Assembly: GCF_037975245.1 (NCBI RefSeq)
Contig: NC_092570.1
Span: 19,295,418 to 19,359,417 of the forward strand
Direction of reading: 5' to 3'
DNA: 64,000 nucleotides
From: Apostichopus japonicus
Taxonomy: Eukaryota; Echinodermata; Holothuroidea; Aspidochirotida; Stichopodidae
The notes beneath the pieces were generated by a model. It ran no database searches. It saw only the letters and a list, made by a program, of their open reading frames with translations, and was not told the DNA's origin. A program made the translations under genes and the position numbers. Shown here piece after piece: positions 2,054-50,700 of the stretch; the stretch's first letter is position 1, and each line of letters begins with the position of its first letter.

Positions 2054-3650
2054 TTTTGGTTGATTATACGCCAACATGCTGGGTCGACTATGTAATTTGG
2101 TTGAATATATGTCAACATGTTGGGGCGACTATGTAATTTTGGTTGAATATATGTCAACATGCTGGATTGACTATGTAGTTTTGGTTGAATATATGCCAAC
2201 ATGCTGGGTCGACTATGTAGTTTTGGTTGAATATATGCCAACATGCTGGGTCGACTATGTAGTTTTGGTTGAATATATGTCAACATGCTGGGTCGACTAT
2301 GTAGTTTTGGTTGAATATATGTCAACATGCTGGATTGACTATGTTGTTTTGGTTGAATATATGCCAACATGCTGGGTCGACTATGTAGTTTTGGTTGAAT
2401 ATATGTCAACATGCTGGATTGACTATGTAGTTTTGGTTGAATATATGCCAACATGCTGGGTCGACTATGTAGTTTTGGTTGAATATATGTCAACATGCTG
2501 GGTCGACTATGTAGTTTTGGTTGAATATATGCCAACATGCTGGGTCGACTATGTAGTTTTGGTTGAATATATGTCAACATGCTGGGTCGACTATGTAGTT
2601 TTGGTTGAATATATGTCAACATGCTGGGTCGACTATGTAGTTTTGGTTGAATATATGCCAACATGCTGGGTCGACTATGTAGTATTGGTTGAATATATGC
2701 TAACATGCTGGGTCGACTATGTAGTTTTGGTTGAATATATGTCAACATGCTGGGTCGACTATGTAGTTTTGGTTGAATATATGTCAACATGCTGGGTCGA
2801 CTATGTAGTTTTGGTTGAATATATGTCAACATGCTGGGTCGACTATGTAGTTTTGGTTGAGAATATATGCCAACATGCTGGGTCGACTATGTAGTTTTGG
2901 TTGAATATATGTCAACATGCTGGGTCGACTATGTAGTTTTGGTTGAGAATATATGCCAACATGCTGGATTGACTATGTAGTTTTGGTTGAATATATGCCA
3001 ACATGCTGGGTCGACTATGTAATTTTGGTTGAATATATGTCAACATGCTGGGTCGACTATGTAGTTTTGGTTGAATATATGTCAACATGCTGGGTCGAAT
3101 ATGTAGTTTTGGTTGAATATATGTCAACATGCTGGGTCGAATATGTAGTTTTGGTTGAATATATGTCAACATGCTGGATTGACTATGTAGTTTTGGTTGA
3201 ATATATGCTAACATGCTGGGTCGACTTTGTAGTTTTGGTTGAATATATGTCAACATGCTGGGTCGACTATGTAGTTTTGGTTGAATATATGCCAACATGC
3301 TGGGTCGACTATGTAGTTTTGGTTGAATATATGTCAACATGCTGGGTCGACTATGTAGTTTTGGTTGAATATATGTCAACATGCTGGGTCGACTATGTAG
3401 TTTTGGTTGAATATATGTCTACATGCTGGATTGACTATTTAGTTTTGGTTGAATATATGCCAACATGCTGGGTCGACTATGTAATTTTGGTTGAATATAT
3501 GCTAACATGCTGGGTCGACTATGTAGTTTTGGTTGAATATATGTCAACATGTTGGGCGACTATGTAGTTTGGTTGATTATATGCCAACATGTTGGGGCGA
3601 CTATGTAATTTTCGTTGAATATATGCTAACATGCTTGGGTTGACTATGTA
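2054..3650. repeat. 42-bp minisatellite, about 38 tandem copies
   Basis: A 42-bp unit repeats head to tail for about 1.6 kb. Each unit contains TTTTGGTTGA, ATATATG(C/T)CAAC and ATGCTGG followed by GTCGAC or ATTGAC. Substitution variants are scattered along the array. Two copies, starting at 2851 and 2937, carry the same 2-bp GA insertion, which points to duplication of an 86-bp block. Because 42 is a multiple of three and the unit lacks stops in one frame of each strand, long periodic reading frames exist on both strands (14-residue periods). I read these as by-products, not genes. Edge copies near 3560-3650 are degenerate. Confidence 0.97.
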
Positions 3651-4433
3651 ATTTTTGCACTAGTTATTGGGCTAATTTAACCAATATAACCAACAGTTAA
3701 TCAGATACATATTTTGTACCAGGTGATAGGTAAACCATATTTTTTTAGAATGCACCAACAAAGACACTGAGTTTACGTAAAATCTAGAAGTAGTTTTCTC
3801 TTAGAATAACTATCATATTAAAATAACATTAAAGTAACTCAAATAGATCTATATACGGCTTCTTATAGTTGCAGGGAAAGTAGATTAAGAAATGTTTACA
3901 AACTTATAACAGTGTTACTCAAACGTTAGTAAGGTTACTTTGTACTTGTTGGCCGAAGAAAATTTTGTTTTGATTTTCATCCCACGTAATTCTGTTCACT
4001 TACCTGTGAAATGTCTTCCCGGATCGTGGACCCGATTTCAAAATAACAAAACCTAATCCCCTCCCCTTTTGATGGAAAACCAACTAACTTTTTAACAAAT
4101 ATATCTCATGTACAGCTTGTACTAAATGCGAAGATCTAGAGTGCTTAGGTTACGTTCCTCTTTTACTCGTCCGAAATCAGTTGCCATCGAATCATTCTGC
4201 TAAATCTGATGCGGACAGTAATTAACCCCTCCTATGACCACCATTACATTACTGACTGGTATGTTATGCGTACACCTGTAGTAGCACTCATAGTGTCGAG
4301 CTCTTGACCATCAATAACCTTACACTTTGCCTAACACCACCGCCTTCCCTTCCCCTCACACCCTCCCCTCACACCCTCCCCTCACACCACCCCCACATTT
4401 CCCACAAGACAAGAGCTGAATGATTATAAAAAT
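3651..4433. other. intergenic region, no gene recognised
   Basis: AT-rich single-copy-looking DNA with no coding exon seen. A short CCCTCCCCTCACA repeat lies near 4345-4395, just before the MITE. Confidence 0.5.
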
Positions 4434-9887: not shown

Positions 9888-9893
9888 TTTATT
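9888..9893 (-). terminator. AATAAA poly(A) signal for the distal FIS1 last exon
   Basis: A minus-strand AATAAA lies about 25 nt after the TGA stop of exon 4b (9918-9920). This is close but plausible for cleavage of a short 3' UTR. Confidence 0.4.
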
Positions 9894-9917: not shown

Positions 9918-10039
9918 TCATTTACCCTTCCCCTTAGCCAGTGCAGCGCCTGCTGCCACCAACCCTCCGATGACCAATGCAGCACCACCAAGAGTCACCG
10001 CTGCCGCTCCACCTACCAGCGCCATACCAATCATCCCCT
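9918..10039 (-). CDS. FIS1: FIS1 alternative last exon 4b (distal)
   Basis: A CAG acceptor precedes 10039. Joined to the single G left by exon 3 it reads EGMIGMALVGGAAAV, continues through TLGGAALVIGGLVAAGAA and ends LAKGKGK-stop (TGA at 9918-9920). It is homologous to exon 4a and in the same phase (1). It carries about eight extra hydrophobic/glycine residues in the membrane segment and two extra residues in the basic tail. The reading frame is intact and the GGLVxAG core is conserved, so it looks like a maintained exon rather than a relic. It could be used by skipping 4a. No transcript evidence is available to me. Confidence 0.82.
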
Positions 10040-13000
10040 CTGAAAATATACAAAAGAACACAAACAAAAAGAAATGTAGCAAAGACCATGATCATATCGA
10101 CCGCGATGTTACATAATATTCTTCTCGGGGAAAAACTAGAAGCAAACCGTAACTTTAATTGTCAACTTTTCCCTTTTTTTGGAAACTTTTTGTCAGCGGA
10201 AAGCCTCGTCTATTTATTTTTAAGTTCAATTTCTTTTTGTTCCTGAGGACAACCCAGACGTAAGAACATGTATTGTAACAGCAAAACACATCATGTAAAT
10301 CAGTCCATGTGTAACCTCGCTTAACAGCACAATACTAGCATGATGTTATTGGTAACAACAGGGAAAATAAGAAATAATTGAATATTATCATGATATAGAG
10401 TAACTTATTATATATTTCTTCTCTCCATATTCCACATTTGTTTTGGTTCATTAGTCAACTGTGTAACAACAGAAGTAATTTTACTTTACACTACAGTGTG
10501 AACTTGGCTTTGATGAATGGATGATATAGCAGCCGGAGCTGAAAGTAATGGCGCTAGACTGTAATACTTTGAGCAGAGAGAATGAGAGAGAGCTATAGAT
10601 TCAGGTTTTACACTTTCGTTGATGTTACTGGTTGTTGTGTCATTATTGCACATTGGGTTCGATCAATCAATTATACAACAATGACGGTGATAGATTTAAT
10701 TATATATAAATGTTTATTTATATATAAATAAATATATATTTATAAATACAGGCCTTGAAATTCAACTTATTCAGGACAAACGGCATCAAGGCCATCATTA
10801 GGAAAACTACTGTTTACAAGTAATTACATTACAAATCAAAGGTCACAAGTCAAATCTGTTGGAAGTCGTACAGTACAGCCGTTTCAACAACAAAACAATG
10901 AATGCAAAGGCCTTGCTGAACTTCAACACTCGTCCACTGTGACACTATTACCACCCATTTCTTTGCTTGTTCTGAAAGACTGAGGTACAGTAGCACCATC
11001 CAAGGATATGGACCGGACGCTACACAGTCTGACGTCTACAGGTACTGTACATAATGTTTTGTCGCAGATAACCTGTGCTACCAACTTGACCAAGTTAAAG
11101 TTAATACCCATAGTCACTGTTGTAAAGAAAGAAATGGTCTATACAAAGTTGAAAAACGGATACAAAAAGTCAAATCAGTCCAGTGCAGTGACAGACGAGC
11201 AAGCTACGATACATACACAAAGATGTACTGTATAAGAAAGCGCAACGATGCAATCAAATAGGAGAAAAGATTGCGTGAAAGCTTAACTTTGTGGCTAAGA
11301 TAAAAAAAATAAAAAATAAGGTGAATGCTTAACTATGAGGTTTTCATGTCTGACAAATTTATGGTGATGTAAGTTCCATTCTGCTCCCTTGTACAAGTGT
11401 ACTACTGTAATGACCTACGAATATGTAATATGACTTATGAATATGCACCCAGTTGGGACAATTTTTTCTACACTGTAGTGTCATGTCCCGCTTCAGAGCA
11501 CTGGTATCGACAGTACGAGCAGTATGAATATCATGTTTCTATCAGATCAAGGTTGAGAACTGTTTTGTACTGTCGATACCAGTGCTTTGAGAGCATGATA
11601 TTGGAGTACAGTTTAGAGAGGTATTAGCGTTAGGAAATTGTCCCAACTGGCTGGTATATATAATAAATATGTAGTATGTATATTCATAGTTTATTACATA
11701 TTCATAGGAATATGTAATAAACTATGAATATGTAGTATGACCTATGAATATGTACTTAACTATGAATATGTAGTATGACCTATGAATATGTTACTGATCC
11801 ACTATTTGGAAACATGAAGATTGAAAGTTGTGTGGAGCTAAAAACACAAGCCATGAGGTGCCCTGGGATTACTGAAATGTCCTTATTTGAAATATCATGC
11901 TATACTGTACACCTACATGTTACAGACATGTTTATTTTCCTTTTGTGATTGCCATCCCTGCAACGACAAGACCTCCAATTACAACTGCAGCGCCACCAAC
12001 CATCGCCATTCCGAACAGCCCGTCTGAAATGCAAAGAAATTTTTAGGGATTGCCATTTAAATCAATGCAGCCCTTATTATTTGAGGCTATAAAAGCCGAC
12101 AGGTAGGTCAAGTTTGCCAAGAGCAGACCTCTATTAGAGTATCCCTCTAGAAGGTGTAAAGATATGATCTAGATGACTTTAAGTCAGAAATTTTGTCATG
12201 ATATGTTAAAGTCTAAGAAAAAGAAAAAAAACACTTGAGTGCTAATAATGTTTTCACAGCTATTCCTGTTTTCAAAATATTCACCTTTAAAATATGCTAA
12301 ATCTCTTAACTGCTACTTTAAAGTTAAATTGATGATGACATTGTCTCCTCAATGCAAGTTTTAATAATCATGTTAATCCAATGCTTTATAAATTTTAATT
12401 TTTAATTTTAATAGCTCAGCCCAAAACATGTTCTTTTAACTTCATATTAACAACAGAGCACCACTGGATGACATTCAACACCATTGGTTCATTGATAAAT
12501 TATGATACATAGTAAAACATCATTGTCATTCGAAGCCACAAAAGTCCTACGTTCAACCATTGAGTTTTCTGTTGCATCTGAGAAACTGACCTAATGGTCT
12601 TTGTGTTAGACTATATAGTCCAGTCACTTTAATTGATCTACCTCAGCTGGGTCATTCTTAAATACTAAAAGTGTTATTGAACTACAACCTGCACTGATAG
12701 CAGGGTGTCTTTTAACAGTGAGTCTACGACATATCAAAATTAAATTTGTCATGCTTGAATGACAAATCTCTCGAAATGAGAAACAGTGATGGAAGAAAGT
12801 GGTAACACAAGCTGTTTTTTTTCTAATACTGTAAATAACTTCTAGTAAGAAAGGTCTTTGGGGGGGCGGCATCACTCTAGAGCTATTGGCATCAGTTTCC
12901 ATTTTATTAATGATCACAAAACGAGCAGTTTGCAGTATTTATATTAGGAAAAGCAGATTGGAAAGAATATATTTCTAGGAAGATAAAGACAGCAGAGAGA

Positions 13001-16000
13001 TAAAAGAAACAGAATTAAGCTGAGTCTAACAGAGGAGGAGGCAAAACTATACGAAAGTTGTCGTAAAAGAGTCTGGAACCAGCTGCCTGTGGCAGTTTCT
13101 GCCTTGGTCTTCAAAGGTCTCATGAAAACATATTTATTAACTGCGGAGTAATGTTTGTACTTTTTGCTTGGTGTTTAGGCTTGGTGTTTGTTTTTATTGT
13201 GTAGTTTATATTCTGTACAGTGCTGTGATCTTTTGAAGAGGACTCTATCAAATACCTAGTTATAATAATAAATAATAATATTAATAGTATTAGGAACATG
13301 TAATGAGTTCAGGAAAAAAATTCAGTGTGTGCAACATTAGACTACAGGGAAACATGAGCATAAATGTGCACTGATACCTACCATTTAATTATGAATCTTG
13401 CATCATTTGTACATTGTGCAATAATGAGTCGTACTTTACAGTACAGTTAACTGAGGATTATCCTGATCTCTTTATATATATCAAGACCATGGATTATCCT
13501 GATCCAGACCATGGATTATCCCAATCTGGAATCTTCCATTCTTGCAGTACAGTACAGTAAAATGAGGATTATCCTGATCTCTTTTAAATATCCAGACCAT
13601 GGATTATCCCGATCTAGACCAAGGATTATCCCAATCTGGAATTGTTCCATTCTTACAGTACAGTACAGTTAAATAATAACCCCCCATGACTGGACTCTAT
13701 ACACATGGTAATATTCACACACGACTGCCTACCCGATAGGTGGCCGTTTCTGACTTTTCGAGGTATTGACCGTTTGGTCTAGTACAGGATACATTTGTTG
13801 TCTCATAAATTAACTGTAATGTAGGCGCATTCAAAATTTTGGAACCTTTCAAGTCAATTCCAATCACAATTTCATCGTTCTCGATACGATTTTGGGAGAA
13901 GTAAAATCGGTAGATGTAAAGTTTTCAGATACCTTCTCCTTTCACGTCTGAGAATGGTACCTTCAGAGCGTTACAAAATCAATGCATACTTCCACTATAA
14001 GAGTATGGACTCAGAGCAGAGATATCACAAGTAACCTTCCAGCAAATGTAACTTATCAAAACAGCGGCTCATCAACTTTTCTCATACCAGTGCAAACCTC
14101 TGGGAAAATATTCTATTATGATTTTTAAATGTCAGCTCTTCTTGATTTAGAGACGACACACCTACTACTGAAGACATAGCTTCAAGAGGGTTCATATGAT
14201 TATACAGATTAGCTAGACAGAATTTTGGTCATGAATTGGTCATGAAAAACACTTGGAATGCTCTTACGGAAGAGTGTGTCATAAACTCTTCAAAGTTACT
14301 TTTTTTTTACGTCTTTCTCTTGCCTATAATTGATCTGTTTCATATTTTGTACGTATCTTTAATTATCTGCTTCTGTTCTTACCTTTATTCATCTTCTTCT
14401 TTATTAATATCTCTAAATCTTTTGCTTGGTGATTGTTTGGTTCAATCTGTAGCAGTCCTTTTACAAACTGTAGAGCCTTGGTGAAATTCTGGAGAGAAAA
14501 TGTCAAAAATTTATAAAGTCAATTTTTTTAAAGACATCAGGTACAGATGGTACACATATGAGTTTGGATATATAAATTAAAAATAGTGCTCGCTCCAAAC
14601 TTGTCACACCACTCTATCCATGCACAAGAATTTATGTCTCTATCTGGAAGGCCTTTAATAATGGCCGGTAATGGCAGGTGATTGTGTTTTGCAATGTGAT
14701 AACCCATACCACAGAAGGACATGAGATGGAAAAGTATTGCTACAGTAGCTTGCAAGACTGGTGTCACAAACTTTTTATATCAACAATTTGGTCTTGCAAT
14801 AATCATTCTCACATAGCAGATGTCATACATAGGACTGGAGAACTTTTGTCTTTAAAACTTAGCTAACTTTGATACCTTCTGCACATTTCTAGGATCATTA
14901 ATATATAATTATATATGTCTTTTTAATGAACAATCCAATATTGCCTTGTCTGCAAACTGAATGAATCTTACATACATGCACTATGATTGTATAATTGTAT
15001 GTTGTACAAGATGTACGTTACTGGGCTTGGGCATGGATCTTGGGCATGGATCTTGGGCATGGATCTTGGGCATGGATCTTGGGCATTGGCATAGATTTTG
15101 GGCTGGGCATGGATGTTGGGCATGGATGTTGGGCATGGATTTTGAGCTTGGTAGCGGGATAGGGACATGTTTCCCACTCTCCCACACACCCCCATCTTTG
15201 TTTAATATGGAGACTCAAATGGATTGTGTCCACCTCCTTTTGCTTTGGTGTCATTCATAGGGTTAAATGCAGAAAAGATTTCATTAAAAAACTAGTATCA
15301 CCACACAAACAATGAAGAAGTGCCCCCACACTGGTCTTACCCTTTTCTATCAATACCCATTTATATCTTTGGAGTGGAACATTCTGCCCTCCCGTGCTTT
15401 AGACCCATCATTGAGATTTGCGCTAAGCTAGACTACATGTCAGTTTCAATATCCTCCCACCCCAGTTTTTACAGCACATCCATATCATATATTGGGAAGC
15501 TTGATGCCCCTCCCCCCCCCACACCCACCATCTACCCAACCAACCTATCCCCGCAGTTATCAGAAGACTCAAGGGACTAAAACATATCCCTTAGTTGGTT
15601 TAAGAACCATGAGAGAGCTTAGTGCAGCAAATTTGGAGATTACACCTGGCACCTCCTTTGCTCTAGCAATTTTAATGGCAACACTGTTTTTGCTGTAATC
15701 GTAGAACAAGATGAAAAAAAAACAAAACAATATGAGCTCCTCAGTATCTTCCCCTACATTCATTGGTTGAGAAATGTCCAATAACATTCTGTAAACCAAT
15801 CAGAGAATTTGTCAAATAATCAGAACTATTTCAAACGCATTCTCACATGAAAGGTCGTCAGATATTGCCAGTAAATATAATCAGAGGGTTTTTGCTCATT
15901 TGCTCATTCACCAGTTTCTTTTGATAGTACTTAACCAATATCTGGTCATAATTTAGAGGGTCAGGACCTCTACAATACTTTACTTTCTACAATAGTACTA

Positions 16001-18629
16001 CAATAGAACTTCCCTTCATTGATGCTTAAAAATTGAAGGCAAGTACTACCGTTCTTTCATATTACTGACAAACTACATTCAGTGTTCTGCCTACTGAACA
16101 TACCTTCAATCTATAATGGCCTACACCTAGGTAAAATAGACAATCTCTCTGTATCTGTTGGCTTCCACCTTGGAGTAACTCTTCCATCAGGATGGTTCCT
16201 TTCTTGATGTCATTGGTGTAAGCACTCCTGACCAAACACCAGCCATACTCAAACTGTGTTCGTGATGAGACCTTCCCTCTTGCGAGCTCTGAGTTATACG
16301 TTTGTTCAAATCTCTGCAATGTGTAGTAAATTAGAATTTGGTTAATTTATTACAATTATGCTATCTGTCCAATTCCACATTCAAAATTACTTACCTCAAA
16401 TGATCAAGGAACAGGAAATTGTCACCTCCTACAGCACGTTCACTAAACAATAAGTATTACAGACCTTGTAGTTTAGATCTAACACATACTTCAGCCTGTT
16501 TACAGAACTTAAATCAAATGAAACTTCCAATACAGAGTACAAAATATGATGAGATTTATTATCTATTAATATTCCCCACAACACCCCGTTATAGGATCCT
16601 ATTTTTACACAATATTTGTATTGATCAAATATGTAATTTATATTAAGTTAAGCCACACTAGACTATGCAGTCACGACACATTGAGGTTGACAATTTATGT
16701 AATTTACCAATATAGTTACTAAAATGGATACAACAATTAACTATAAAGTGAGTTGTACATTCCCCCCACCCCCAAAAAAAGAAACACAAGATGGTGTACA
16801 ATGTTCAATAAGTAAATACCACTTCAATAATCAAAGGAGTAACGTCTGATTGTTAGGACTATCCAGTTATTGTAACATAAACTGCACAACAGGATTTTAA
16901 GTTTCTGCACTTTTTTAGTTTTTCTCTGGGCTCCTGTGTTGGGACTTAATGAGACTTTTTAGACCAGTCATTTTTGTCTAAATTGTATTAATACTGGTTG
17001 GTTCCAGTGCCATTCTGTCATAGGTACATTCCGCCATACCATTCCGTCACAGGTTTCGAAACCTATGGCGGAATGGTACATTTTAGGAACGGATTTTACA
17101 CAGAAATGTATCCGTAAAACTTTCTTTGATTCGCATGGAGGATAGGTACAGTCCAATGTGACTGTTCGCTGGATAGACTGAAATGTAGTTAACACTAGGG
17201 AATAGATCACACTGTCTTCAAATATAATTAAAATATAGTTGGTTGAATAAATTGAATTAATTTAGGAGTATTTATAGAATACAGGGCCACTCGATTCTAT
17301 CTGAGCATCCGGATGCGCGGATGCTTAGTCTCACCCCAGTACGTATGTGAGTAAAAAATGTCAGAGTCCAAGTTCTTTCTTTTTGAGTTGATGCGCGGAT
17401 GCGGAGTCAAAAATTTCCTAAGTCCTTTTCTAGTACTTCTGTGGTGGAATTTTAGAGGCCGTCGCACATGTACGGATGCCTTTTAAGAACGACACACTAT
17501 TGATGTGGAATATCTTCGTACATATGGGACTTTCAGTATTGGAAATAAGTGATGGTATATGTTGAAACTTTTCGAAAATTATTTAAGTCCATTCCTAGTA
17601 CTCCCGGGATGGATGAGCGGATGCGGAGTCAAAATGAAATACTTGATGGTATATGGGGAAACTTTCCAAAATTATCTAAGTTCTTTCCTAGTACTCCCGT
17701 GGTGGATGCGCGGATGCGCGGATGCAGAGTCAAAATAAAATACGTGATGGAATTTTAGAGGGCGCCATACGTGTACGGACATGTACAGACACACCGCGCA
17801 TCCGGATGCCGGGAAGAGTTAATGAATGGCCCTGTATTCTATAATTGTACCTTAATTTAGACTGATTGTTTATTAAAAGGACCGATTCTGATTGTCGACT
17901 TAAATCACTAGTGTCTGCCGTTTTAATATGTGACAAACAGAGGCAGTTCAAAACTAATGGTAGCCTACCCAATTAGGAAGTCGGTATGTATGTCACAATC
18001 AGAAGTTTGGGGGAAAAATTGCAAGTATGTGGGAAGTTGTTCATACTTATATTTGGTTCCCCCGCCGCCCCGCCCCCCCCCCCAAGGAATAAAAAACAAG
18101 ATGGTGTCCATTGTTCATGAAATCAATACCACATCAAGAATCAAACAAGTAATGTCATAGGCTGACTGTCACTGCCACTAAGTGTCAGTGGGGAACCGTG
18201 TCAGTGTAGGCCTAAGGACTATCCAGTCATTGTATTCACTATGTAACTTAATCTACACAACAGGAGTTTAAGTTTTTGCATTTTATTGTTTTTCTGAGGT
18301 CCTGTGTTGGGACTTTATGAGAATCCTAAGGCCTATCTTTCTATCTAAATTGTTTTGATTAATACTGCTTAAGCCTAGGTATAAATAGGCCTAGAGTAAC
18401 TTTAGTCCTAAAGTAGTTAGGCATAGGCCTTATGTTTCTTGTTACTGTTAGGCCTAGCCTAGGCTTAGGCTAGTTTTACACTGGTTGCGCTGAATAAGAC
18501 TGATCCGGTTAAGCAAAAATTTAATATATTAACTACTAAAATGAATCTGAAACAATGTTTAGCCATTGGTGCCCCAAAATAAACCTTTATTTCTTCAACT
18601 GTCACTGTTTCGTTGATAATTTCCTCCAT
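9918..18629 (-). CDS. FIS1: FIS1, mitochondrial fission 1 protein, with alternative last exons
   Basis: FIS1 is the tail-anchored adaptor on the outer mitochondrial and peroxisomal membranes, with a TPR-like helical bundle facing the cytosol. Coding exons: 18585-18629, 16104-16313, 14383-14488, then either 11932-12023 (4a) or 9918-10039 (4b). All junctions are GT/AG and phases agree. Exon 1 encodes MEEIINETVTVEEIK. Exon 2 contains the family hallmark TQFEYGWCLVRS and FYLGVGHYRLK. Exon 3 contains KALQFVKGLLQIEPNNHQAK. The last exon supplies the Gly/Ala/Val-rich transmembrane tail. Predicted products are 150 aa (4a) and 160 aa (4b), against 152 aa in human. The N-terminus aligns with vertebrate FIS1 without gaps over about 120 residues. 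The 5' UTR was not resolved. Confidence 0.95.
11449..11650. repeat. nested inverted repeat (202-bp foldback)
   Basis: Outer arms at 11449-11464 and 11635-11650 are a perfect 16-bp inverted match (CCAGTTGGGACAATTT). Inner arms at 11497-11516 and 11567-11586 are a perfect 20-bp inverted match around TGGTATCGACAG. The structure is MITE-like, and an RNA copy from either strand would fold into a long hairpin. It lies between the two FIS1 terminal exons. Confidence 0.9.
11690..11790. repeat. tandem 'tatgaatatgtagtatgac' repeat
   Basis: Several copies of an 18-36 bp unit containing TATGAATATGTA(G)TATGAC lie immediately beside the foldback. Similar units occur on its other side at 11405-11445, so the foldback is embedded in a small satellite-like block. 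Confidence 0.7.
11932..12023 (-). CDS. FIS1: FIS1 alternative last exon 4a (proximal)
   Basis: A CAG acceptor precedes 12023. With the G from exon 3 it reads DGLFGMAMVGGAAVV, continues IGGLVVAGMA and ends ITKGK with TAA at 11932-11934. This matches vertebrate FIS1 (DGLVGMAIVGG... then a glycine-rich membrane helix and a short basic tail) in length and sequence, so I take it as the canonical anchor. It is nearest to exon 3 (intron of about 2.36 kb). Confidence 0.93.
12024..14382 (-). other. FIS1 intron 3
   Basis: No coding exon seen. It contains a direct duplication with a period of about 111 bp at 13438-13672. Confidence 0.85.
13438..13672. repeat. tandem duplication, period about 111 bp
   Basis: Two adjacent copies share 'gaggattatcctgatctctt', 'agaccatggattatcc', 'ggattatcccaatctggaat' and end in 'cagtacagtacagt'. 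Each copy also contains shorter internal GGATTATCC(C/T) repeats. Confidence 0.9.
15019..15150. repeat. 13-bp minisatellite (GGGCATGGATCTT)n in FIS1 intron 2
   Basis: Four near-perfect copies of GGGCATGGATCTT are followed by degenerate copies (GGGCATGGATGTT and others). Open frames crossing it on both strands are repeat artefacts. Confidence 0.92.
16757..16995. repeat. intron-1 duplicated block, copy A
   Basis: Shares a series of ordered matches with 18060-18365: a C-rich run, 'acaagatggtgt', 'caataccac/aaataccac', 'ggactatccagt', 'cacaacagga', 'cctgtgttgggact' and 'attaatactg'. The two copies flank the inverted-repeat element at 17274-17842. Copy B carries an insertion of about 50 bp relative to A. 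Confidence 0.8.
17007..17080. repeat. short foldback repeat, copy 1
   Basis: Begins GTGCCATTCTGTCATAGGT. It is centred on a near-perfect hairpin (arms 17038-17056 and 17059-17077, two mismatches, 2-nt loop) with the motif ACCTATGGCGGAATGG. The same termini and motif recur at 54656-54766, so this is a dispersed family. Confidence 0.75.
17274..17842. mobile_element. 569-bp inverted-repeat element (MITE-like)
   Basis: Terminal arms at 17274-17296 and 17821-17842 match as inverted repeats (ATAGAATACAGGGCCA then C/T). Just inside, GCATCCGGATGCGCGG is repeated in perfect inverted orientation near 17306 and 17797. The interior has about three diverged direct copies of a module with 'aagt(c/t)c(a/t)ttcctagtact', 'GGATGCGGAGTCAAAA' and 'GGATGCGCGGATGC'. 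There is no coding content, so it is non-autonomous. It lies in FIS1 intron 1. Confidence 0.8.
18060..18365. repeat. intron-1 duplicated block, copy B
   Basis: Partner of 16757-16995, same orientation. It contains an extra segment with GTGTCAGTG repeats (about 18150-18215) that is absent from copy A. Confidence 0.8.
18585..18629 (-). CDS. FIS1: FIS1 exon 1 (coding part)
   Basis: The ATG at 18627-18629 opens a 15-codon exon followed by a GT donor at 18583-18584. It aligns residue for residue with the vertebrate FIS1 start (M-E-x-x-x-N-E-x-V-x-V-E-[DE]) and joins in phase 0 to RFEQTYN of exon 2. It is too short to be noticed as an open frame. Confidence 0.9.
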
Positions 18630-29125: not shown

Positions 29126-31966
29126 CTTCTTCCTCTACCCGCCCCACCCCATCCCCGCCACGACACCCACCCCCTAGATAACAGGTTTCGATCTCCTTTT
29201 ACATTAAAGGTGGCCATTGGCGTTATCCATATGTATATGGAAGGCTTAGTATAATATCACAAAGCAGCCTGGGCATATAGGCATACTGATTGATAACACC
29301 TGTTAAATTACATGTTCCTGTGATAACACTTCTGAGGTAGTCAACATTTTTTGTATATTTCTTTTCGTCTAATTAATAAGATATTTCCTATGGTTCCTAT
29401 GCTAATTACCAAAATGTGTTAGACTAAGAACTCTTGGCCTATTCTCATAGCCTATACGCACGGATACACAAACGCGTAACCATGCAACAATTATTATTTT
29501 CTCCTACGCAAATAGTGCGATTCAAAGAAATGTACGGTATATTATAATAGATAAAGGTTTGGAATGGGCACACCTGCAGCTAAAAAAATGCGACGCTTTG
29601 GTGATCACATTTATCGAGATTTGACTTCTTTCGTGACAGATAGAAACAAGTGTCTTATATTTAGTATTTGATTTGGACTTTCGAACATCAATATATGATG
29701 TGTTAACTAGTACACGGCACCGTATAGTGTCACAGTATAGTGTCACAGATAGTGTCACAGATACTTCATAGTCTAGTTTACGTACATGCACTATATGAAA
29801 GAAAGAAAATATTAATTATGCGTTTCATTCTCCGAGATTTTGAGGAAAACGCTCAAATGGCGATAGGACCAAGGTATATAGGCCTTTCTGGTTTGGGACG
29901 TTATCAAAGTCCAAAGTCATCATTTTTCGCAAGTTATGCTAGAGAGTCAGATAATGGTCACATATACTCCGACTTCATTTTACTGCCACCTGCATCTTAA
30001 AATTCTTTCTCATGGAGATTTAATTAGGCTGTCTAACTGAACACTCCTCAAAAGGTCTTGGAATAACTTGGCAGGTCAGAACCCCCCTCAGAAAATATAG
30101 TTTTGACAACTTAAAGGAGTTTTTTTTTTACGGAGAATGCTAAAATTTGTGGTCAATTTTTGCTGATGACCAAAGGAAATTGACATACACATGGCTCGAT
30201 ACAAATATAACCTGTAGTGCCTTTTGCACCATCCAGTGTGTGATGTTGTTTGTTTTATTCCAAATTTATTCGTTTGGCAAGTGGGCGTGATATCGATTAA
30301 AATAGCTCTCGGTTTACTGACGATTTTACCGACCATTAATTGTCACTGAATGAAACTGTTATAGGTAACTTGATAGCTACTGTCTCGGTACCTGATTTAA
30401 ACAGATGCCACGGTGTAGTCCGATCTACCAACCACCCCCCCCCCCTCCCCCAAGACGCATAGCCCACCTCCCGTGTTGCCAAAGTGTTTTCCCCATTTTA
30501 AGGCTCAGAGGATTGAAGTTATCATCATTTTATGGCTTACTGTACATTGCTATGACTTTTCATGACATCACATACTAGGCTCTTTATACACTGTTATAAA
30601 CTCGAAGTTTGAGGAAGGGAGAGAGGGGGTGAGGTCCGTTTGGGATGGGGTCCAAATCACATTTCTTTGAGAAAGTATTGTTTCGGTTGCGGGGCTTAGA
30701 TGCAAAATGTTGCTTTTTCATGGCTATAGCTTCATTTGCCATACGAATCTGCGCTCGTGTGCAATTCTTTGCCGTATCGGTTTCGTACCTATAACTTCTG
30801 TGGGGTGTGGCACACACCCCCCTCCCTCAGCAGCCTCCTCTCCCACCCCAACATTTTGTCTACCTATAGGCGGCTATACAGTGCATCATCAGCTATATAG
30901 CATAACCTCTGTTACTTCTGATGCGCTCTGTAAGGTTACTACTTCGCACCATAGCGCAAATAATACGACACAGTTTTAAAATAAGTATAATTTAGTGAAT
31001 CCATAGTAAACAGTGGTTAATTAAAACTTTAGAGAATAACGTGAAATATGTAAAGTATCATATACAACAAGCAGCATCTATACATTGCGTAATAAATGAC
31101 GTCACATGACAAAACGATTTTGTGACTGATATTCTAAAGTTTAATAATTTTATTTAAAGTTAAGTGGGTATTCCAAAACTCAGATGTGAATTACATTTTA
31201 TTCATAAACCCAGATGACCATTAGATTCAGGGCGCTGTAAAAATGACATTTATTTGCATGACTATAGGTTCCTCAATTCCATAAACATGACTTTCTTGTT
31301 TTCTAATTCTCTGCCCCTCTCTCTCTGCGCATTTGCCCCCGTCGTTTTTCTTTTATTTCCTATTCTTTTTGGCATGCATTAATATTTCCGGGTGTTTTTA
31401 ATTAAACTAATGCGTGAGTCGAATTCTCACTAACGTTTAGTCTATGATTTACCTTTCAGCCGTGACACAGAACTTGTATGCACCCGGAACACCATGTATA
31501 CACACACACAAGTTATGCAGAACGTGAACTTTTTTTAATAAGTAGTCGGCTGGTTTTGCACAATTGCGTTATGCCTATGACAACAACAACAAACAAACCC
31601 ATATTATGTATTATAGGCCTACGCGTCGTTATTGAAGGTATTGTAACTATAGTGTACTAAGCGGAATACGTATTACAGACAGCTCCACGGTATATAGCAG
31701 AAACATTTTAACAGGTATCGTGTGACTGTGCGCAGGGAGACGTACAAAAACGTCTGACTGTCTGATCTCCAAAGTTATTGCTGTTATTTATTAAGGAGGA
31801 AAAGATTATTATTTTTCGTGTTCATTTCTTATATGTCGTCTGCTAAACGTGAGTATTTATTTTTTGATTTTTTGAAACCGGTGATCGCTCTTGAGGTTGT
31901 AGCCTACGTTCGAATATGTAAGCCACACAACAACATGCATTCATTAAAACAATATTTATTTTGTAG

Positions 31967-33760: not shown

Positions 33761-34051
33761 GTATGACGCAAATCACTGAATTTCAAAAGTGCAGTCTTTC
33801 TTAATAGATATGGAATTGTGGCTCGACTTTGCAGATGTTATAAATTCCTTGATTTTCACGTTTTGCAATATTTTATTTTAATCTTTAGTGAGGAGCATAG
33901 TTTATGAAATTACTTATACTGTCCATTTTGTGTGTGTCTGTGTGTGTGTTTGGAGTTAAGGGAAGTGTTGTTCATAGCTAAACAATCTCTATTGCTAAAT
34001 GCATGTGAATGAATATCTTATTCTTGTTCATGTTTTTTTCTTTCTTCACAG

Positions 34052-35696
34052 AGTTCTCAATTATTGTAACCTAGAAATGTCTACCAAGGCAGTCATCGAG
34101 AGGTCAGGGGCTCGGAAGACCAGGACCCCGGCCCGCTCGGGTCCCCAAAGGCCTCGGTCTTCATCAGCAGGAAGACTCAACGTGCAGAGTGATTCTTCCT
34201 CCCGAGGACGCTCTGTCAGACCAATTTCGCATCCGGCGGAGAATAAATCAGACGCATTGTCCGATTACGACATCAGAATGTATATAGCCAACAGAAACCC
34301 TAGCTGTGAGAGACCGGCGCCTGTGTCCTCAGGACGGCTTTACTCAAAATCACAAACCAGAGAGAAACCTGTCGAACGGACACCACGGAGGGACCGGAGT
34401 ATGTCACCGAGTCCTCTACGGACCCGTCCCTCCGCTACTTCACCAATCGACAGCAGCCCCTCATCAGCGATAACTAGTCGTAAACAGAGCTATCTCCGTT
34501 CGTCTTCCGTGGACGCATTAACGCGTTCGCATTCACCGTTTGCGCCGCCTAAAGCAGTCCACATTGGACTTAAAAGTCCAGGCTCGCCATCCAGCTTCGT
34601 CTCCAAGACTCAGAGCGCCAAAGGGACAGTGAAACTGGAAGGAATTAATAACTCCACGAGGAACGCGCAAGTCCTGAAAAAATTTGGCGAATACCGATTA
34701 CAGGGGCGATTAATCGATTTAACGTTAGGATTTTTCGGAGGATTAGAAATCAAATGCCATCGGATCGTCTTAGCTTCTGCGAGCACTTACTTTAAATCGC
34801 TATTATCGAGTGGGAATAGACACGTGACGCGACACGACTTTATTCAAATGAGGGGTGTTCAATATTCAGTGATGGATATCCTGGTCGACTACGCCTACTC
34901 TGGTACCATCGCTGGAGTAGAACGCGACATGATGGCAAGCTTAACGGAGAGTTCGAGAGTCTTTAAATTCAAAGACGTCCACGAGGCTTGCAAATCATAT
35001 CTACACAAAGAGAAGAAGAGCGTAAAATCTCGCACCATCGCGCAACTCAAACATATCGAAACTCTCTCTGAAGATGGACTAGGTAATGACTCACCAACAC
35101 AGGTGACGTCACAGGGTGACGTAGGACGCACAGACGACGACTCTGGTCAGGAATCGTCCTCTGAGGTTCCACCGTCAGAGAGAACGGATGAGAAAGACCG
35201 GAAGCGCTATGATAGTGGTAACGACTCCACTAGTTTACGATCAACTCTCAGTAGTTCAGATTTCACTCCTCCGGATTTTTCGTATAACAACCCTAAACAT
35301 GCTAACGACATTGTTAGAGAGATCAATCGAACCAGGAGAGAGGCCATTTTGTTCGACGTCGTACTACGTACACAAACGAAAGACTTTCCGTGTCAAAGGT
35401 TAGTCTTAGAAACCGGAAGTTCGTATCTGTCCCATCTCATCACACAAGAACTACAAGGTTCCAAGCACATGGACGTGTTTTTAACCAGGATACCTTCGGA
35501 TGTGTTACAGAAGTTAGTAGGTTACTTGTACACGGGCAAAATGGAAATCACCGACAGGGACGTGAGGAAAGTTTACAAATGGGCGAAAAAGTTTCAACTG
35601 AATGAAGTCTGCGAAGCCTGTTGTACGTTGGATGACACTATTGATACAACTAAGAGTATAGTATCTGAGAAAACAACATTAACAAATCCAGAGTAA
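34052..35696 (+). CDS. tandem BTB/POZ-domain protein, single coding exon
   Basis: A 3' splice site (TTTCTTTCTTCACAG, ending 34051) precedes the exon, so I place the start at the ATG at 34077 and not at an earlier in-frame ATG inside the intron. The product is 539 aa. Residues 1 to about 190 are a Ser/Arg/Pro-rich, probably disordered head. A first BTB fold spans about 200-310 (LIDLTL then HRIVLASASTYFKSLL, ending AYSGTI). A Ser/Asp/Glu-rich linker follows. A second BTB spans about 421-530 (LFDVVL, CQRLVLETGSSYLSHLI, GYLYTGKM). No BACK, Kelch, GTPase or zinc-finger domain is present. BTB domains dimerise and often recruit cullin-3; a role here is inference only. The stop is TAA at 35694-35696. 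The upstream UTR exon was not found. Confidence 0.88.
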
Positions 35697-47701: not shown

Positions 47702-50700
47702 TTATTTTACCTTCTTCCCCTTTCCTTTCTTCTTCTTCTTCTTTTGTAAACCCGATCCGAGCTTGACTATCTCATCGAACGTGTCACCATTCATCCGGTG
47801 GGTGACTGACACCTTCACCCCTGGGAGGTCCTCCTCCTTCCTAGCTTTTAACCCTTCCATGATGTCGCGACCCCCAAGGTCACCGATTAGGTTATCGTCT
47901 AGGTCCAACTCGGAGAAACAGCTGGAATGCTGAAGCAGTCTGACGAAGTTGCAAGAAAGAGAAGGAAAATAATGTGGACATTTTTCCATCTGAATTGAAT
48001 GGAATTTCTGCTTCACTTTCTTGTAGAGTGACAAACTTAAAAGCGCATTATTTCTGCACTCACGTTTTATATTATTCAAGTATTCAAATAAAAAAGCAAG
48101 CATCTTTACCAATAGAGGGCGCTGTAACACAATTGATAAATAACTGATCAATTCAGGAATCAGTAGCTTAAAGTCATGCCCAAGGGAAGTCTTTACATAG
48201 CAAAAGGTCAAACATAAATACTAAGGCAGGAAATAGGATGGGAAGGGGAATCTCAAAGGTGAATGAAATTGAAAGGGGGAAACTGAATCATAGTCTATAT
48301 TCCAATTACTTTCATTTCACAGGAGATTTAATAGAGTTTCTGTTGATTCAGTGCTCCAAACACAAAAAGGTTTTTTGAACCTTGATTGGCCATGGTAAAG
48401 GTAGTAGTTAGTTAGTTATTGAAGAAGGTGTAAAACTAAATCGAGACAGCTTAAAGAGAGTAACAAAGTAACTTAATTTTTATCAACTACTACTGATGGC
48501 ACTTCTTGGTTCAAAAATCAAACTTTTGAAGCACATCTGCTTCATGAAAGATCATTAAAGTGAAGCTGTATTTGTCCAGAAAAATGCAAGATAATTCTAA
48601 TCATAGTTTATTTACGCTAAAACTTACTCACGCACTATCACAGAATGTGTTCTCATTGGAACTTTCATTTTACCCTGATCATGCCCCCCCCCCACCCCAG
48701 TTTCATGTCACAAATCAATTTGAAGGTTTGAATCAGAGCAAGAAATTGGAACCTTTTTGTCAATTTTTAGCGGGGTAATATTTATAATTTCGTTACAATT
48801 GAAGATGATGAGCTTACTCATCTACGAGTGGTAAATGTGTTAACGAGCTCACAGGCACTTCACAAAGCAATTCAGGAGAAAGAATTGTTATCTTGTATAT
48901 ATAACGTTGGATGAATTGGTATAAAAATGCAGACTTCTGAACTCATCCAGTTGTTATTTATGGAATGTAAGGGAATAGTTTTTCCTGGTTAAGTTGAATG
49001 CATTCATTTATAGTTATAAAATATCAAAAGTTATAATCATTTTGGGACTTACTGTCTAAACAGTCTCATAGCAATAACAGGGCCGTAATTGGACCCTGGG
49101 CCGTAGCTATCGATACCGTTATCCGCGATATGTAGCTTATGGATCCAGGGGCCAACAGGAGGGGGACCTGGTGGCTCCTTACTCTTCTTCTTTTTCCCTT
49201 TACCTGTTAACAAAAAAAATATGCAAACATCAAAATACAAAGCTATAGATTTAATTTATATCTTAGTTAGTAAGTAATAATTAATACTGGATGATGTTTC
49301 AAGCACCATGTCTACCTCCTACCCACCCCCCCCCCCCACACACCCCCTCTCCATAACCTGTCCATGAATAATTATGTGCAAGTTTTGAGCATCAGCCAAT
49401 GAACATGAATGGCGTTAGCATAACATTATTAAATGAAAATGAATGGTGTTCGTATAACAGCTTCTTGCATCTGCTGCAAACACCCCTAATACCTTAAATA
49501 CCAGCCTTCAATTGTGAGCCTCCCCATCCCCCCCACCCACCCCCATTCCTGTCAATTTTAACAAAAGGTTAAGATTTATGCGAGGTCAAATCAAACCATA
49601 CCTTTCTTTTTCTTTCCTTTCCCACTTTTGCTACTTCTTGCAGAAGACGGCTTATCGTTGTCTTCTTTGTCACCCTCAGAAAGAGCGGTCTTGACCCTTG
49701 ACCTTTCCTTTTCTGTAATATGCAAGTGAGAAGAACCTTTAATAAATGAAACCTCAAAGACCAGTACTTCACAAGAATGATATTTTTCATATTTTTCATT
49801 TTCATGAAGAAATCCACCAATTCTTCATTCCTAGCTTCACCTATCCAACACTTACAAGACGTAAAGATTCCTTGCAGGAATGAGTTTACGAGTGACAGAC
49901 TACAGTTTAGTGTTAATCCAAATTACTAGGTGCGATTTCTGTTAAAAAGAATTTCAGTAAGTGTTTGAACTTGATACAACCATAGATAACCTTATCAAGT
50001 TGTGAAGTTCAAATACAGATCATTCAATGTTCCTGGCCCCATTCACCCATTAGATACACAAGCAAGGTGCGTATGCATCTCAGTGCTTCAAGTTCTCACT
50101 GGTTTCATCAATTGATAAACTTACTTATAAAATCAGTTGCTCACATTTTTCCTGACACTTCCCTCAATAACTCAAAATGGTTCCCATTAACTGTTAAAGC
50201 AGTGGAGGATGTAACTAATAACCTAGATAAATCAAGAGGCTGATACGTCCATCTCACCTGCCAAAAGCGCCAGAGCTTCTTGTTCTGCTTTTTGTTCCTT
50301 TTGTTCCGCTCTCTGGAGACTTTCTACCTCTGCCTGGTCGGCAGCTAATTTGATGATTTCAATAGCGCCCTCAGCTTCCAGGTTATTGCCATTCAAGTAA
50401 ACTTCTCTGTAAATGAATATAATATATATCAGAGAATTCCAGAAAGATGAAATTTAAGATATTTTGTGTAACCACAATCAGACCTTTGACATTGGTCAGA
50501 AAATACTTCTCTGAATTCCCAGGAAGTCATTTGAGATGATAAAATGGTATACTGCACTAAGATACATGTTCGTCTGTCAGTGGCTGGAAGGAATAAAAAT
50601 TGTGAAGCTTTACTGAGGTATGAGGCAAATTAATTATTAATTTTATTATGGGTTTCAAACTTTTTTGCCATAAACCTAGTAGTATAAAGGACATCAGGAT

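What the first reader, a model, noticed from the sequence alone, without database searches (positions are those of the whole stretch)
9918..12023. Duplicated FIS1 terminal exon gives two alternative membrane anchors
Both 4a (11932-12023) and 4b (9918-10039) have a CAG acceptor, enter in phase 1 after exon 3, keep the GMA(M/L)VGGAA and IGGLVxAG core and end in a stop after a basic tail. Vertebrate FIS1, as far as I know, has one such tail. This predicts two proteins identical in the cytosolic domain but with different tail anchors. Since the tail decides mitochondrial, peroxisomal or ER insertion, splicing could partition FIS1 between organelles.
Basis: partly seen in the sequence, partly recalled or inferred. 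Interest (0 to 1): 0.82.

Follow-up and report, generated by a model that had tools for sequence, protein, structure and literature searches.

The report
Echinoderm FIS1 with duplicated tail exon
A sea-urchin- or sea-cucumber-like animal carries two related versions of the last exon of its mitochondrial fission gene FIS1, which would let one gene make the same protein with a short or a long membrane anchor; similar tail choice is already known in fruit-fly Fis1 and in other anchored proteins.

Summary
The minus strand carries a complete FIS1 gene (exon 1 18629-18585, found here; exon 2 16313-16104; exon 3 14488-14383; no second copy found) followed by two homologous terminal exons, 4a (12023-11932) and 4b (10039-9918). 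Both have a CAG acceptor, fit exon 3 in phase 1, and encode a FIS1-type tail with a short basic end and a stop. The spliced products are 150 and 160 residues. 4a and 4b share 21 of 30 aligned residues although synonymous sites are near saturation (dS about 1.7, dN about 0.22); a freely drifting 4b would not look like this. The host is most likely an echinoderm, not a vertebrate: its mitochondrial COX1 fits code 9. The main difference is anchor length (25 against 34 residues; 8 codons inserted), not targeting chemistry: hydrophobicity and tail charge (+2 against +3) are close and human-like. Separate organelles are possible but not indicated. Alternative Fis1 tails are already published for Drosophila (LL and LS), and alternative tail anchors for SLMAP and DMPK, so this is a clean new case of a known kind. 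No RNA or sister-species data could be reached.

The parts
18585..18629 (-). FIS1 exon 1 coding part, MEEIINETVTVEEIK, phase-0 donor AAG|GTTTAT
16104..16313 (-). FIS1 exon 2 (70 codons)
   Evidence: acceptor TTGCAG, donor AAG|GTATGT, phase 0
14383..14488 (-). FIS1 exon 3, ends in phase 1 at AAAG|GTAAGA
11932..12023 (-). terminal exon 4a: (D)GLFGMAMVGGAAVVIGGLVVAGMAITKGK*, the tail closer to human FIS1
9918..10039 (-). terminal exon 4b: (E)GMIGMALVGGAAAVTLGGAALVIGGLVAAGAALAKGKGK*, anchor longer by an 8-codon insert
9888..9893 (-). AATAAA 24 nt after the 4b stop (candidate poly(A) signal)
   Evidence: AATAAA starts within 24 nt downstream of 2.3% of minus-strand positions
11690..11695 (-). first AATAAA after the 4a stop (236 nt), inside a perfect 24-bp hairpin (arms 11680-11703 and 11708-11731)
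11446..11653 (.). high-copy interspersed element with inverted ends between 4a and 4b, MITE-like

Best explanation
4a and 4b arose by duplication of the FIS1 terminal coding exon and are kept as alternative last exons. Exon 3 splices either to 4a (transcript ending downstream of 4a) or, skipping 4a, to 4b. Either choice completes the same cytosolic TPR domain with a tail anchor. The likeliest effect is to change the anchor within FIS1's normal membranes, the mitochondrial outer membrane and peroxisomes: short (25 residues) and slightly more hydrophobic from 4a, long (34 residues), Gly/Ala-rich and slightly more basic from 4b. That could alter insertion, extraction, or helix packing and clustering. 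Shown by sequence: gene model, phase, homology of the two exons, and constraint. Inferred: splicing of both, exclusive use, location and effect.
For: Both spliced reading frames are complete. Exons 2-3 with tail 4a match Fis1_TPR_N (5.7e-13) and Fis1_TPR_C (3.7e-24) and human FIS1 1pc2 (1.4e-46), with the alignment running into the tail as kdglfgmamvgg/KDGLVGMAIVGG. Acceptors: 4b 12 of 16 pyrimidines, exon 3 13, exon 2 10, 4a 10. Constraint: 21 of 30 residues identical; codon positions 1, 2 and 3 identical in 22, 28 and 11 of 30; dN 0.22, dS 1.73; random placement of the 29 differences never reached 21 identities in 20,000 trials. With half the synonymous divergence (d = 0.87) on a neutral branch, no run of 4000 kept 21 identities; at d = 0.43, P is about 0.004. 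Bootstrap: dN at or above dS/2 in 0.28%. Gap placement: 15 of 15 tried give dN 0.21-0.32 and dS 1.4-2.8. No other FIS1 head or tail was listed in the genome. Anchor measures.
Against: No RNA evidence could be reached. No sister species could be searched. Only 30 codons are compared, so dS is imprecise: lower 95% bound 0.71, and 26% of bootstraps are saturated. At a neutral divergence of 0.2-0.3 on one branch, 21 identities would still be possible (P 0.41-0.44 and 0.06-0.07). The pairwise test cannot say when the constraint acted. The first AATAAA after 4a lies in a strong hairpin with a mobile element close downstream, so 3' end formation for 4a is uncertain. Searched alone, the 4b tail finds no solved structure at E up to 10 and the 4a tail finds human FIS1 only at E = 8.8.
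Confidence: 0.72

Rival explanations
1. Organelle switch: 4a and 4b send the same FIS1 head to different membranes (for example mitochondria against peroxisomes or ER), and splicing sets the ratio.
For: Alternative tails change location in DMPK and SLMAP and in FALDH. 4b has one more basic residue and a less hydrophobic segment, the direction that favours peroxisomes or mitochondria over the ER. Fly Fis1-LS was partly cytoplasmic while LL was not.
Against: Both tails lie close to human FIS1 (charge +2/+3, GRAVY 2.09/1.89). Human FIS1 is already shared between mitochondria and peroxisomes, and both fly long forms reach the mitochondrial outer membrane.
Confidence: 0.17
2. Only one of the two exons is used today; the other is a formerly used exon that is now decaying.
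For: No RNA data; the first AATAAA after 4a is in a hairpin beside a mobile element.
Against: Both frames, acceptors and stops are intact while synonymous sites are near saturation; the neutral simulation speaks against long decay of either exon. Recent loss cannot be excluded.
Confidence: 0.09
3. 4b is the last remnant of a second, tandem FIS1 gene whose other exons were lost.
For: 4b lies about 1.9 kb downstream of 4a in the same orientation.
Against: No clear remnant of exons 1-3 near 4b: besides the true exons, the best exon 2 hit in the window is E = 0.54 (57895) and the best exon 3 hit E = 0.24 (47292); hits within a few kb of 4b have E of 3.6 or more. The genome search lists one head. 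An orphan tail without a head would not be kept under constraint. As an origin of the exon it remains possible; as a present state it is unlikely.
Confidence: 0.03

Closest known systems
Drosophila melanogaster Fis1 LL and LS isoforms (PMC8208795)
   Same: One Fis1 gene, alternatively spliced, giving two full-head proteins (154 and 148 aa) whose C-terminal tails differ; isoform-specific sequences in the 3' UTR, hence probably alternative last exons (my inference); both proteins seen on Western blots.
   Different: The passages read do not say whether the fly tails come from a duplicated, homologous exon. The fly proteins differ by 6 residues in length, these by 10. Fly LS was also partly cytoplasmic.
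SLMAP TA1 and TA2 alternative tail anchors (PMC2712456)
   Same: Alternative C-terminal exons encode alternative tail anchors on one head; targeting differs (ER against ER plus mitochondria) (passages).
   Different: The SLMAP tails are stated to have no sequence homology; 4a and 4b are homologous and alike in chemistry.
DMPK A/B against C/D; FALDH-PO against FALDH-ER
   Same: Isoforms of one gene with different tail anchors, sorted to different organelles (DMPK splice isoforms: PMC2778554, passages; FALDH isoforms: PMC5450235, passages; that the FALDH forms arise by splicing is recalled).
   Different: FALDH tails differ far more in charge (+9.1 against -1.1); here +3 against +2.
Tandem duplicated exon substitution events (PMC9741552)
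   Same: Adjacent homologous exons of one gene used one at a time, mostly ancient; 154 fly genes; terminal regions often hold membrane helices (passages).
   Different: Exclusive use is not shown here. The main text does not mention FIS1; its supplementary gene lists were not seen.

Membership tests
FIS1 (mitochondrial fission 1) | Two-TPR cytosolic domain | tested here: met
   Fis1_TPR_N 48.8 bits (cut-off 25) and Fis1_TPR_C 85.1 bits (cut-off 25.3); human FIS1 1pc2 E = 1.4e-46
FIS1 (mitochondrial fission 1) | N-terminal arm before the TPR domain | tested here: met
FIS1 (mitochondrial fission 1) | Single C-terminal membrane segment with short basic end | tested here: met
   4a 25-residue segment + TKGK; 4b 34-residue segment + KGKGK
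Tandem duplicated exon substitution event | Adjacent homologous exons | tested here: met
   21 of 30 residues identical
Tandem duplicated exon substitution event | Same splice phase, each completing the frame | tested here: met
   453- and 483-nt open frames
Tandem duplicated exon substitution event | Transcripts use one or the other | not testable with these tools
   no RNA reads are held
Tandem duplicated exon substitution event | Both copies under constraint | tested here: met
   dN 0.22, dS 1.73 over 30 codons; neutral runs fail if the divergence is shared about equally
Tandem duplicated exon substitution event | Conserved in related species | not testable with these tools
   no animal genome other than the window's own can be searched; a viral-contig scan with exon 2 gave no relative
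Organelle-switching alternative tail anchors | Tails fall in different targeting classes | tested here: inconclusive
   hydrophobicity and charge close to each other and to human FIS1, judged by the rules in PMC5450235 (passages); the paper's classifier was not run

The most novel reading that the evidence does not exclude
Echinoderm FIS1 carries an old, regulated choice between a normal and an unusually long, glycine-rich anchor (34 residues, with a repeated VGGAAAVT/LGGAALVI unit). Cells use it to move FIS1 between mitochondria and peroxisomes, or between free and clustered states on one membrane. The fly LL/LS pair would be a parallel or even shared invention, so that alternative anchors would be a general, overlooked control of FIS1 in invertebrates.
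Probability: 0.13. Interest if true: 0.7.

Novelty: new member of a known kind. Interest (0 to 1): 0.42.

Why it matters
The tail anchor decides where FIS1 sits, and how its distribution is adapted to the needs of mitochondria and peroxisomes is described as not known (PMC9549241, passages). A gene that keeps two homologous tails on one head is a natural tail swap in which mainly anchor length and fine chemistry change. If RNA shows tissue- or stage-specific use, the pair gives a simple test of what anchor length does in FIS1 function. With the fly isoforms it would suggest that one tail is not the rule for FIS1 outside vertebrates.

Tried and rejected
Chance origin of 4b: rejected. Decayed pseudo-exon: disfavoured by the neutral simulation unless the loss was recent or the clock very lopsided. 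Remnant of a tandem second gene: no clear remnants of exons 1-3, one head listed in the genome. Gap placement as a source of the low dN: 15 placements give the same picture. Duplicated sequence beyond the exons: in a blastn of 14382-11000 against 10999-8000, the two significant pieces cover the exons (one begins 6 nt before them); the next has E = 0.22 and is on the other strand. Searches that led nowhere: NCBIfam for the tails, PDB for the 4b tail, viral contigs with exon 2 (5 pattern matches, none confirmed), Rfam over the window, bacterial-type promoter/terminator scan (not suited to an animal gene). Literature: searches listed no paper whose title or abstract start deals with a duplicated FIS1 terminal exon or with echinoderm FIS1 isoforms. 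These listings show only the top rows (25 of 528, 15 of 240, 3 of 3, 10 of 20, 12 of 115,289, 12 of 983, 15 of 610), so absence from print is not shown. Opened as passages: PMC5450235, PMC9747602, PMC9413518, PMC2712456, PMC2778554, PMC9549241, PMC9013439, PMC9741552; PMC8208795 as passages and one section. No paper was read whole.

Full report
What is there. The minus strand of the window carries one complete FIS1 gene. Exon 2 (16313-16104) and exon 3 (14488-14383) encode the TPR domain (Pfam Fis1_TPR_N and Fis1_TPR_C) and match human FIS1 along their whole length (1pc2, E = 1.4e-46). Exon 1, for which the finding gave no coordinates, lies at 18629-18585 and encodes MEEIINETVTVEEIK. Exon 3 ends in phase 1 at AAAG|GTAAGA. 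Two exons follow: 4a at 12023-11932 (acceptor TTTCAG|ACG) and 4b at 10039-9918 (acceptor TTTCAG|AGG). Joined by machine, they give proteins of 150 and 160 residues without an internal stop.

More than chance. The 4a tail finds 4b by tblastn at 6.4e-9, and the best other hit in the window is 0.65. The gapped score is 93, against at most 43 in 60 Markov-1 windows and 34 in the real window with both exons masked. Of 65 strong acceptor-like sites on the minus strand, 7 open a phase-1 frame of at least 37 codons and 1 of 65, 4b, opens a tail-anchor-like peptide (4a's acceptor, 10 of 16 pyrimidines, lies below that filter). The tail of human FIS1 (partly from memory) finds 4a at 1.5e-6 (52% over 31) and 4b at 1.7e-4 (39% over 38), so 4a is the more human-like tail.

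Constraint. Over 30 aligned codons, 21 residues are identical. Codon positions 1, 2 and 3 are identical in 22, 28 and 11 cases; pS is 0.68 and pN 0.19, giving dS of about 1.7 and dN of about 0.22. Placing the 29 differences at random never gave 21 identities in 20,000 trials. If one exon alone had drifted freely for half of the synonymous divergence, about 7 identities would remain, and no run of 4000 reached 21. At a neutral divergence of 0.2-0.3, which would need a strongly lopsided clock, 21 identities would still be possible (P about 0.4 and 0.06-0.07). Bootstrapping gives a lower 95% bound for dS of 0.71, and dN reaches half of dS in 0.28% of replicates. All 15 gap placements tried give dN 0.21-0.32 and dS 1.4-2.8. 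The duplication therefore looks old and both copies kept.

Origin. Outside the exons I found no significant similarity between the two neighbourhoods (14382-11000 against 10999-8000), as expected for an old event. No clear remnants of exons 1-3 lie beside 4b. The whole-genome search (671.6 Mb, 35 contigs) listed only this head and these two tails. That search scores only its best candidates, and the query of exons 2-3 plus 4a did not itself list 4b, so weak extra tails could be missed. 4b carries an 8-codon insert next to a similar 8-codon unit (VGGAAAVT/LGGAALVI, 15 of 24 bases equal) and two more residues at the end.

Host. The 16,099-base mitochondrial contig encodes a COX1 (Pfam match) whose 11 AAA codons include sites such as GFGNWL and RMNNMSF that I recall as conserved asparagines; this is code 9, which by recall is used by echinoderms and flatworms. 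The gene order, read by eye from the open frames (COX1, ND4L, COX2, ATP6, COX3, ND3, ND4, ND5, ND6 reversed, CYTB, then ND1 and ND2) with the large rRNA on the same strand at the end, fits sea urchins and sea cucumbers from memory. The comparison with vertebrates in the finding is thus most likely across phyla.

How it most likely works. Since both exons end in a stop, only the first one that exon 3 joins can complete the protein. This is an alternative-last-exon arrangement: use of 4a with a nearby poly(A) site, or skipping of 4a and use of 4b. 4b has an AATAAA 24 nt after its stop; 2.3% of minus-strand positions have one that close downstream. The first AATAAA after 4a is 236 nt away and lies in a perfect 24-bp hairpin (folding z-score -4.2). 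About 280 nt after the 4a stop begins a copy of an interspersed element with inverted ends. Whether these slow 3' end formation at 4a and so help 4b is a guess. The proteins differ in anchor length (25 against 34 residues; human 26), hydrophobicity (GRAVY 2.09 against 1.89; human 2.09) and tail charge (+2, +3; human +2). By the rules worked out for mammalian tail-anchored proteins (PMC5450235, passages), both should behave much like FIS1 itself, which is shared between mitochondria and peroxisomes. I therefore favour tuning of the anchor over a switch of organelle, with the switch as the main rival.

What is known. Drosophila Fis1 gives LL (154 aa) and LS (148 aa), whose tails differ; both were seen as proteins and at the mitochondrial outer membrane, LS also in the cytoplasm (PMC8208795, passages and one section). 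SLMAP and DMPK use alternative tails that change location (passages), and FALDH isoforms differ in tail and location (passages). Homologous exon pairs used one at a time are a recognised class, mostly ancient (PMC9741552, passages). So the mechanism is of a known kind. A duplicated, homologous terminal exon in an echinoderm FIS1 did not appear in the listed rows, which show only the top of each result.

Limits. No RNA data, no other animal genome and no localisation data could be reached. The two decisive facts, splicing of both exons and their conservation in sister species, remain untested.

Noticed in passing
11446-11653: About 210-bp interspersed element with inverted ends and an inner palindrome, between 4a and 4b. 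First look with the 381-base query around it gave 1965 candidates; 40 were scored: the query's own place and 39 others at 89-94% identity over about 204-247 bases, plus 5 short secondary matches. MITE-like.
   Followed up: partly
11680-11731: Perfect 24-bp hairpin (arms 11680-11703 and 11708-11731) beside a 38-bp tandem repeat at 11708-11791, enclosing the first AATAAA after exon 4a.
   Followed up: partly
2054-3655: Tandem array, 42-bp unit, 38 copies, 93% matches; the unit is a multiple of three and long open frames run through it on both strands, which I take not to be genes.
   Followed up: no
33999-35693: 565-codon open frame on the plus strand with BTB/POZ domain matches (E = 3e-35, two stretches).
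   Followed up: no
47705-48220: Minus-strand open frame of 172 codons with a leucine-rich-repeat-like stretch resembling NLR-type genes (by eye only; no Pfam hit).
   Followed up: no
G000:C29:14745-16086 and 30842-31219: Five further COX1 pieces on another contig, besides the mitochondrial contig C35: nuclear copies or a second mitochondrial contig.
   Followed up: no
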